IMG/VR virus record: IMGVR_UViG_3300025121_000027
Location: 43,006-107,005 of that record
Origin: a virus
Length of the DNA: 64,000 bases
Reading direction: 5' to 3' (one strand)
Of the stretch, positions 49,784-49,925 are shown one piece after another. Numbering within the stretch: position 1 is the stretch's first letter; the number at the start of each line of letters is the position of its first letter. The translations under genes were made by a program, and so were the position numbers. The notes below the pieces were generated by a model that saw nothing but the letters and a program-made list of their open reading frames with translations, was not told the DNA's origin and did not search any database.

Positions 49784-49925
49784 TTAGCAAGAAGTCGTAT
49801 AAGCTATGTTGATTATACAGATTGATTTAGAGTCAATTGCGTATACCATTCCGCCTTATTCTCCGAAGAAAATAGAAGGAGTCGAACCTTCAAGTATCAT
49901 GTAAGCTTAATGCGGTGCTTGCTAA
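49784..49925 (-). ncRNA. Y-like RNA B: circularly permuted tRNA-like domain
   Basis: 142 nt, minus strand. The closing stem TTAGCAAG/CTTGCTAA (49918-49925, 49784-49791), an internal loop (CACCGCAT / TACGACTT) and stem TAAGCT/AGCTTA match RNA A in layout. The tRNA-like part is in permuted order: T arm GAAGG-TTCGACT-CCTTC (49875-49891) comes first, then TATTTTC (49868-49874), a TTCG tetraloop (49864-49867) and GAGAATA (49857-49863) forming a closed acceptor stem, then a D arm (GCG-GAATGGTATA-CGC) and anticodon arm ATTGA-CTCTAAA-TCAAT (anticodon CTA). The new ends emerge from the variable region into the Y stem. Confidence 0.75.

What the first reader, a model, noticed from the sequence alone, without database searches (positions are those of the whole stretch)
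49784..49925. Circularly permuted tRNA-like domain closed by a UUCG tetraloop, with an amber-type anticodon
In RNA B the T arm comes first, then a 7-bp acceptor-like stem (TATTTTC with GAGAATA, one G-U) whose ends are joined by TTCG, then D arm and anticodon arm. The chain ends therefore leave through the variable region into the Y-type stem. The anticodon loop CTCTAAA has T33 and anticodon CTA, complementary to UAG. Its neighbours A and D carry the same arms in normal order. This is a direct view of a permuted tRNA mimic grafted on a stem, which standard tRNA finders would miss.
Basis: seen in the sequence. Interest (0 to 1): 0.9.

Follow-up and report, generated by a model that had tools for sequence, protein, structure and literature searches.

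The report
Phage RNA with rearranged tRNA shape
Next to a gene for a Ro60-like RNA-binding protein, this phage encodes a small RNA whose centre is a complete transfer-RNA cloverleaf with its parts in rotated order, sealed shut where an amino acid would attach; relatives keep the shape while the sequence changes, so it is probably a purpose-built tRNA imitation.

Summary
On the minus strand, 49925-49784 encodes a Y RNA: a two-part stem with an internal loop, carrying a full tRNA cloverleaf in the order T arm, acceptor (closed by UUCG), D arm, anticodon arm. It is one of four Y RNAs directly upstream of a divergent Ro60/TROVE gene (47642-49105), confirmed by predicted fold. Six phage contigs, the window included, carry this same form. 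Across them 28 pairs are kept in 95% of cells and 22 pairs show two-sided changes; no shuffle reaches this. Seven of seven rotated domains are called tRNAs by ARAGORN, none as found. The anticodon differs in every relative, so 'amber' means nothing special, and B cannot readily mature into a tRNA. Circular permutation as such is known: bacterial YrlA RNAs already run T-acceptor-D. New here are the retained anticodon arm, the Ro stem entering through the variable region, and, in relatives, Ro stems grafted at several other points of the tRNA. Best reading: a Ro60 ring holds the stem and offers the tRNA-shaped head to a tRNA-binding protein, perhaps as a decoy. Binding, expression and function are untested. 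Verdict: new variant of a known kind.

The parts
49784..49925 (-). RNA B: Y RNA with complete circularly permuted tRNA-like module (the finding)
   Evidence: Y-stem scan score 16.2; R1 model 122.6 bits (B is in the training set); consensus fold
49918..49925 (-). B, outer Y stem, 5' strand TTAGCAAG (pairs with 49784-49791)
49904..49909 (-). B, inner Y stem, 5' strand TAAGCT (pairs with 49800-49805), followed by TACATG 49898-49903
   Evidence: 8 of 8 inner-stem pairs with a two-sided change
49875..49891 (-). B, T arm GAAGG TTCGACT CCTTC
49857..49874 (-). B, acceptor-like stem TATTTTC/GAGAATA closed by UUCG (loop 49864-49867)
   Evidence: 7 of 7 pairs kept in all six relatives
49839..49854 (-). 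B, D arm GCG GAATGGTATA CGC (preceded by AG at positions 8-9, so no U8)
49821..49837 (-). B, anticodon arm ATTGA CTCTAAA TCAAT, anticodon CUA at 49830-49828
49792..49799 (-). B, 3' side of the internal loop TACGACTT, the ACUU motif shared with the 3' strand of the Rfam YrlA consensus (AaAcUuG)
50016..50151 (-). RNA D: Y RNA around a tRNA in ordinary order (anticodon CAU)
   Evidence: Y scan 16.7; Rfam tRNA 60.1 bits; ARAGORN tRNA-Met; YrlA 21.5 bits, below gathering score 69
49937..50007 (-). RNA C: short Y RNA, hairpin head without tRNA arms
   Evidence: Y scan 16.7
49645..49774 (-). RNA A: Y RNA around a tRNA-like domain in ordinary order (anticodon UCC, acceptor weak)
   Evidence: Y scan 17.9; Rfam tRNA 47.8 bits, model 4-67; not called by ARAGORN
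47639..49105 (-). Ro60/TROVE-like protein, 488 aa
   Evidence: profile of 8 relatives matches TROVE proteins in PDB at 1.5e-5 and human Ro60 at 4.7e-4; predicted fold (pLDDT 84.4) best matches Ro60/Rsr over 414-438 residues, Z 16-19

Best explanation
RNA B is a phage-encoded Y RNA, the partner RNA of the Ro60-like ring protein encoded just downstream. Its two-part stem is the Ro60-binding handle. Its head is a closed, complete, circularly permuted tRNA: chain order T arm, acceptor, UUCG, D arm, anticodon arm, with both ends leaving through the variable region, so the Y stem takes the place of a long variable arm. The UUCG cap removes the charging end, so the head is built to look like tRNA, not to act as one. 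Mechanism: the Ro60 ring holds the stem and the head docks a protein that recognises tRNA. The purpose I favour is a decoy or bait that occupies host tRNA-directed enzymes, such as anticodon nucleases, during infection; keeping the anticodon arm makes sense there. SHOWN here: sequence, conserved structure, array next to the Ro60-like gene, co-occurrence. INFERRED: transcription, Ro60 binding, docking of a tRNA-binding protein, decoy purpose (about 0.4 for decoy, 0.3 for RNA-decay tether, rest open).
For: Array of four Y stems immediately upstream of the TROVE gene with clean controls. Protein is Ro60-like by profile and fold with an invariant MIDAS-type DxSxS (D304, S306, S308). Six relatives: 95.1% of 164 cells paired, 22 of 28 pairs and 39 cells with two-sided change, 0 of 500 shuffles as high; sliding partners by 1-3 columns drops pairing to 36-49%. 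All five helices come out of an unguided consensus fold. The permuted form scores over 100 bits with model R1 in 6 of 12 TROVE-bearing phage records in hand (window; eleven others); of the seven whose TROVE gene was found by protein search, 3 have it, though one of these (L034 = L032) had also turned up in the earlier DNA pattern scan. Rotated to ordinary order, 7 of 7 domains (L110 included) are called tRNA by ARAGORN, 0 of 7 as found, 0 of 1400 shuffles. Among 28 contigs tested, TROVE is present in 4, all among the 6 with a Y-scan hit of 16 or more. YrlA order T-acceptor-D is seen in Rfam's own model. A published proposal that YrlA could competitively inhibit an anticodon nuclease exists (PMC7790460, passages read).
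Against: No expression, binding or structure data. No sigma-70-like promoter in 49100-50700 (0 found, shuffles average 4.3). Single-sequence fold is only modestly stable and lacks the anticodon arm. B does not reach the Rfam YrlA model (no match) and the TROVE protein does not reach Pfam PF05731 (0 of 8 members listed it; 2 of 15 records matched, neither of them of the window's subfamily). A8 replaces the near-universal U8, so tRNA mimicry is imperfect. No anticodon nuclease or counter-defence partner was identified. The 7-for-7 rotation test is not independent: the seven were picked by a scanner that demands the four arms, U33 and GG. The covariation rests on six sequences.
Confidence: 0.7

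Rival explanations
1. RNA-decay tether (RYPER type): the tRNA-like head recruits PNPase or another exonuclease to the Ro60 ring, so that structured or damaged RNA is fed to it; the anticodon arm is incidental.
For: Known role of Y RNA in Deinococcus, where it tethers Rsr to PNPase (PMC7790460 passages; PMC8394870 passages; PMC4726728 passages).
Against: Does not explain why the anticodon arm with U33 is kept and fully paired in the T-first modules that also have acceptor and D arms on a Y-scan stem (6 of 6 phage RNAs: window B, L034, L035, L002, L042, L166); plasmid locus L318 at 4182 splits the anticodon stem around the Y stem instead. No phage PNPase was looked for.
Confidence: 0.3
2. Permuted tRNA gene: B is cut in the UUCG loop and becomes a working amber-type or other tRNA, split at the variable arm.
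For: Rotated sequence is a good tRNA by ARAGORN. Permuted tRNA genes exist in algae and archaea (PMC3978253 passages). In relative L042 the loop reads CCAACA, which could hold a CCA end.
Against: B has a 4-nt UUCG cap with no CCA, and A8 instead of U8; UUCG caps 3 and GCAA 2 of the six. Anticodon differs in each relative. TAG is used as an ordinary stop (8 of 52 ORFs). The Y stem is kept and fused to the cloverleaf.
Confidence: 0.07
3. Relic: a broken tRNA gene trapped beside Y RNAs, without function of its own.
For: A8 in B and the weak acceptors of A and D look degenerate.
Against: Two-sided changes preserve all five helices, acceptor in all six sequences; the same order recurs in phages whose Ro60 proteins share only about 30% identity.
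Confidence: 0.06
4. Chance or artefact of adjacent tRNA genes read as one permuted unit.
For: Model R1 does pick up neighbouring tRNA pairs at up to about 52 bits (19 of 379 genomes besides the MAG).
Against: True members score 102-136 bits (all six built the model); B has no tRNA half on either side; zero in shuffles.
Confidence: 0.01

Closest known systems
YrlA, bacterial Y RNA (Rfam RF02553; Salmonella YrlA crystal structure 6CU1)
   Same: Encoded near Ro60/Rsr; end-paired stem with internal loop and AacUuG-like 3' side; tRNA-like head in permuted order T-acceptor-D (Rfam model seen; 6CU1 superposes on tRNA with circular permutation, PMC11472068 passages).
   Different: YrlA has no anticodon arm in the Rfam model and its Ro stem continues from the D arm, where an anticodon arm would be. 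B keeps a complete anticodon arm and its stem leaves through the variable region. B does not reach the Rfam model even at E 5.
Phage Ro60/TROVE proteins and phage YrlA
   Same: Ro60-like genes in jumbo phages are in print (PMC7824862, PMC7765460 passages), and a Ro60 from Thermus phage phiLo is in the PDB (9l5y, listed). Phage Y RNAs near Ro60 were reported by Chen 2014 (recalled; not held).
   Different: The protein here is outside Pfam PF05731, and the heads are far more varied than YrlA.
Circularly permuted tRNA genes (red algae, archaea)
   Same: 3' half upstream of 5' half.
   Different: Those have a spacer between the acceptor ends, are joined through bulge-helix-bulge splicing and mature into ordinary tRNA (PMC3978253 passages, partly recalled). 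B has a 4-nt cap and a Y stem.
tmRNA / two-piece permuted tmRNA
   Same: tRNA-like domain, permuted gene order in some bacteria.
   Different: No alanine-type acceptor end; Rfam tmRNA models do not match the window. A tag reading frame was not looked for.

Membership tests
Bacterial Y RNA (YrlA-like) | gene next to a Ro60/Rsr gene | tested here: met
   B ends 679 nt upstream of the TROVE start; fold and profile are Ro60-like
Bacterial Y RNA (YrlA-like) | 5' and 3' ends paired in a stem with internal loop, ACUU on the 3' side | tested here: met
   YrlA consensus compared
Bacterial Y RNA (YrlA-like) | T, acceptor-like and D arms in that order | tested here: met
Bacterial Y RNA (YrlA-like) | Rfam RF02553 score at or above 69 bits | tested here: not met
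   B: no match; D: 21.5 bits
Bacterial Y RNA (YrlA-like) | binds Ro60/Rsr | not testable with these tools
   needs binding assay
Ro60/TROVE protein | ring of helical repeats plus VWA domain | tested here: met
   Foldseek E 2e-10 to 9kop, VIA-align Z 18.7; Rsr 2nvo Z 16.8, 438 residues
Ro60/TROVE protein | Pfam PF05731 match | tested here: not met
   hmmscan at E 0.1 of 8 members lists no PF05731
Functional tRNA / permuted tRNA gene | acceptor ends that can be opened and carry CCA | tested here: not met
   UUCG cap, no CCA
Functional tRNA / permuted tRNA gene | charged or RNase P processed | not testable with these tools
   needs biochemistry
Functional tRNA / permuted tRNA gene | cloverleaf recognised after rotation | tested here: met
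   7 of 7, shuffles 0 of 1400; not independent of selection

The most novel reading that the evidence does not exclude
Ro60-bearing phages and some cyanobacterial plasmids run a modular mimicry system: one Ro60-binding stem is grafted onto tRNA bodies at many different points (acceptor end, acceptor/D junction, D loop or in place of the D arm, D/anticodon junction, anticodon loop, variable region), giving nearly every circular permutation of tRNA, and also onto a fragment resembling the 23S rRNA GTPase-centre and sarcin-ricin loop. The heads would form a library of translation-machinery decoys displayed on Ro60 against host RNA-cleaving defences.
Probability: 0.3. Interest if true: 0.88.

Novelty: new variant of a known kind. 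Interest (0 to 1): 0.7.

Why it matters
The known effector head of tRNA-mimicking Y RNAs lacks the anticodon arm. A form that keeps it, with the stem moved to the variable region, says that the whole tRNA surface can be the thing displayed, and lets one ask directly what protein reads it. If the decoy idea holds, it would give Ro60 in phages a purpose and a counter-defence made of RNA. The set of graft points is also a natural experiment in which parts of tRNA must stay uninterrupted for recognition.

Tried and rejected
Amber suppression or recoding: rejected, the anticodon varies and TAG is an ordinary stop. Plain tRNA relic: weakened by covariation. TROVE search with the window protein alone in viral contigs found no relative; it took the three-row alignment A1. 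Rfam YrlA as a detector: below cut-off throughout. Model R1 as a specific detector under about 60 bits: rejected, neighbouring tRNA pairs reach 52 bits, so L076 (56 bits), L110 (49), L037 (45) are not counted as B-type. Promoter search gave nothing. Host: the same TROVE gene lies in MEWG01000024.1, a contig binned in a WWE3 genome, but only 1 of 379 genomes of that phylum has TROVE or a full-length R1 hit above 100 bits, that same one, so binning error is as likely as a host link. NCBIfam gave nothing useful; PHROGs gave phrog_850 'RNA-binding protein' for 5 of 8. Papers not held and not read: Chen 2014, Wang 2018, Sim 2018 and 2020. That the anticodon-bearing form is unpublished is therefore not established; my searches found no mention in their listings or in the passages read.

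Full report
What is there. The window is part of a 107-kb virus record with portal, tail sheath and minor tail genes, i.e. a contractile-tailed phage. On the minus strand, 49925-49784, lies RNA B. Read 5' to 3': outer stem strand TTAGCAAG, internal-loop strand, inner stem strand TAAGCT, TACATG, a short linker, T arm, acceptor-like hairpin capped by UUCG, D arm, anticodon arm with loop CTCTAAA, linker, inner stem strand AGCTTA, TACGACTT, outer stem strand CTTGCTAA.

Is it more than chance? A scanner for the four arms in this order finds B and nothing with all four arms in 20 dinucleotide shuffles of the window. A second scanner, for the stem (outer helix, gap, inner helix, TACA ... inner helix, gap, ACTT, outer helix), finds exactly four hits of 15 or more in the window: D, C, B and A, adjoining one another on the minus strand upstream of the Ro60-like gene. 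It finds none in 20 shuffles and none in 224 kb of other phage loci. Folding B alone is less convincing: z = -2.1, 6 of 200 shuffles as stable, and no anticodon arm in the minimum-energy fold.

The neighbouring protein. ORF 49105-47642 matches no TROVE model in Pfam. A profile of eight relatives matches TROVE proteins in the PDB at 1.5e-5 and human Ro60 at 4.7e-4. An AlphaFold2 model from seven sequences (pLDDT 84.4, pTM 0.69) has Ro60/Rsr structures as its best full-length matches: 9kop Z 18.7, human Ro60 Z 17.1, Deinococcus Rsr Z 16.8 over 438 residues. It is a divergent Ro60.

Relatives. Protein searches gave LR756511.1, a 595-kb phage, and six IMG/VR contigs, L034-L039; DNA patterns gave more. 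TROVE was found in the full records of L042, L043, L131 and L166, 4 of 28 records tested; these four are among the six of the 28 with a Y-scan hit of 16 or more; the other two, L252 and L202, have none. In all, 12 TROVE-bearing phage records are in hand, the window included. The Y-stem scanner hits 11 of the 12 (not L037). The B form, above 100 bits with model R1, is in 6 of 12: window, L034, L035, L002, L042, L166 (all six built the model). Of the seven whose TROVE gene came from protein searches, 3 have it (L034, L035, L002); L034 is the same contig as L032, which the pattern had already brought in, so selection is not wholly free of RNA patterns.

Conservation. The six were aligned. An unguided consensus fold recovers Y inner stem, T, acceptor, D and anticodon helices, 28 pairs, 22 with a two-sided change. 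Counted on the named structure: 95.1% of 164 cells paired, against 69.8% in shuffles and 36-49% with partners slid; 39 cells with two-sided change against 11.8; 0 of 500 shuffles reach any measure. The acceptor-like helix pairs in all six; its cap is UUCG in three, GCAA in two, CCAACA in one. Rotated into ordinary order, 7 of 7 domains (these six and L110) are called tRNA by ARAGORN with anticodons CUA, CAU, UGA, UUU, UAA, GAU and AUU; none is called as found; 0 of 1400 shuffled versions are called. The selection of the seven already demanded the arms, so this is a check, not proof.

How it compares. The Rfam YrlA model, seen on phage locus L008, runs stem, T arm, acceptor-like hairpin, UAGCUC...GAGC D arm, stem. 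The 2024 ARTEMIS paper reports that the Salmonella Y RNA 6CU1 superposes on tRNAs with a circular permutation (PMC11472068, passages). What B adds is a full anticodon arm after the D arm, and ends that leave through the variable region. L037 has a T-acceptor-D head without an anticodon arm beside its own TROVE gene, so both forms occur in this protein family.

More graft points. In LR756511.1 the stem also appears inverted, closed by GAAA, inside otherwise ordinary tRNAs: in the D loop (1768-1894) and between D and anticodon arms (about 3955-4072); similar inserts are in L293 and L295, the latter in place of the D arm. L036 at 1985 opens between acceptor and D arm, L131 at 244 between D and anticodon arm; unconstrained folds show these. 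L318, a Kovacikia minuta plasmid with a TROVE gene at 31% identity, has a stem entering the anticodon loop at 4182 (read by eye) and, at 8169, a Y stem holding 23S rRNA-like sequence: Rfam LSU 49.5 bits, E 4.9e-14, model 1081-1156, just under the gathering score of 50, plus the sarcin-ricin string AGTACGAGAGGA (the name of the motif is recalled). A Dolichospermum plasmid has an 81% identical copy, which Rfam did not list at E 0.01. These readings are partly by eye and not tested by covariation.

How it may work. Shown: sequence, conserved structure, neighbourhood, co-occurrence. From established Y RNA biology (papers seen in passages): Ro60 holds the stem, the head docks an effector. Inferred: here the effector reads tRNA. 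Since the cap removes the charging end, B and L034 lack U8, and the anticodon varies, a working tRNA is unlikely. A retained anticodon arm suits a decoy for anticodon nucleases, an idea already voiced for YrlA (PMC7790460, passages), at about 0.4; a PNPase-type decay tether is the main rival at about 0.3.

Limits. No transcript, promoter, binding or host evidence. Six sequences. The key papers on YrlA were not held, so I cannot say that anticodon-bearing Y RNAs are unreported; searches named under Tried and rejected found none.

Noticed in passing
L318 8169-8375 (+), Kovacikia minuta plasmid pA; L319 6562-6359 (-), Dolichospermum plasmid pAfl69: A Y-type stem (scan 18.8 and 15.7) encloses sequence like the 23S rRNA GTPase-associated centre (L318: Rfam LSU 49.5 bits, E 4.9e-14) and the sarcin-ricin string AGTACGAGAGGA. 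Partial copies in a few other plasmids; a HEPN-domain gene lies near the Dolichospermum copy.
   Followed up: partly
L002 1768-1894, 1978-2103, 2242-2362, 3955-4072, 4455-4582; L292 about 2600 (-); L293 7128, 8955; L295 5040: Y stem in inverted order, closed by GAAA or similar, inserted in the D arm region of tRNAs that keep ordinary acceptor ends.
   Followed up: partly
L036 1985-2112, L131 244-375, L318 995 and 4182: Other circular openings of the tRNA body on a Y stem: acceptor/D junction, D/anticodon junction, anticodon loop.
   Followed up: partly
L076 5102-5243 (+): T-acceptor-D-anticodon domain with loop GCCAAAACA (room for a CCA end), closing stem but no Y motif; no TROVE in its 173-kb record. 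Could be a true permuted tRNA gene.
   Followed up: partly
L110 3643-3781 (+) and 6670; L217 14321 (-): L110 has a B-like permuted domain on a long stem without the ACTT motif and no TROVE found; both contigs also hold short strings like the 23S GTPase-centre, which Rfam does not list at E 0.01.
   Followed up: partly
window 50228-50475 (-): A tRNA-like T arm and 3' acceptor strand (CCAGGTTCGAATCCTGGCAGCC) could pair with GGCTG roughly 200 nt upstream; perhaps a tRNA-like RNA with a very long insert. Fold z = -1.7, and the predicted fold does not show that acceptor pairing.
   Followed up: partly
window 16358-18859 (+): Portal protein gene interrupted by an intein with a LAGLIDADG domain.
   Followed up: no
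window 41562-44258 (-) and 51986-58102 (-): MptE-like/Maf glycosyltransferase gene and a sugar-biosynthesis cluster (Polysacc_synt_2, GFO/IDH/MocA), possibly nonulosonate-type glycans carried by the phage.
   Followed up: no
L033 2059-7558 (+), 14-kb contig: Array of ordinary tRNAs mixed with permuted tRNA-like units flanked by AGATACATRCAGCA ... GTATCTNGTTAT repeats; no TROVE in this short contig.
   Followed up: no
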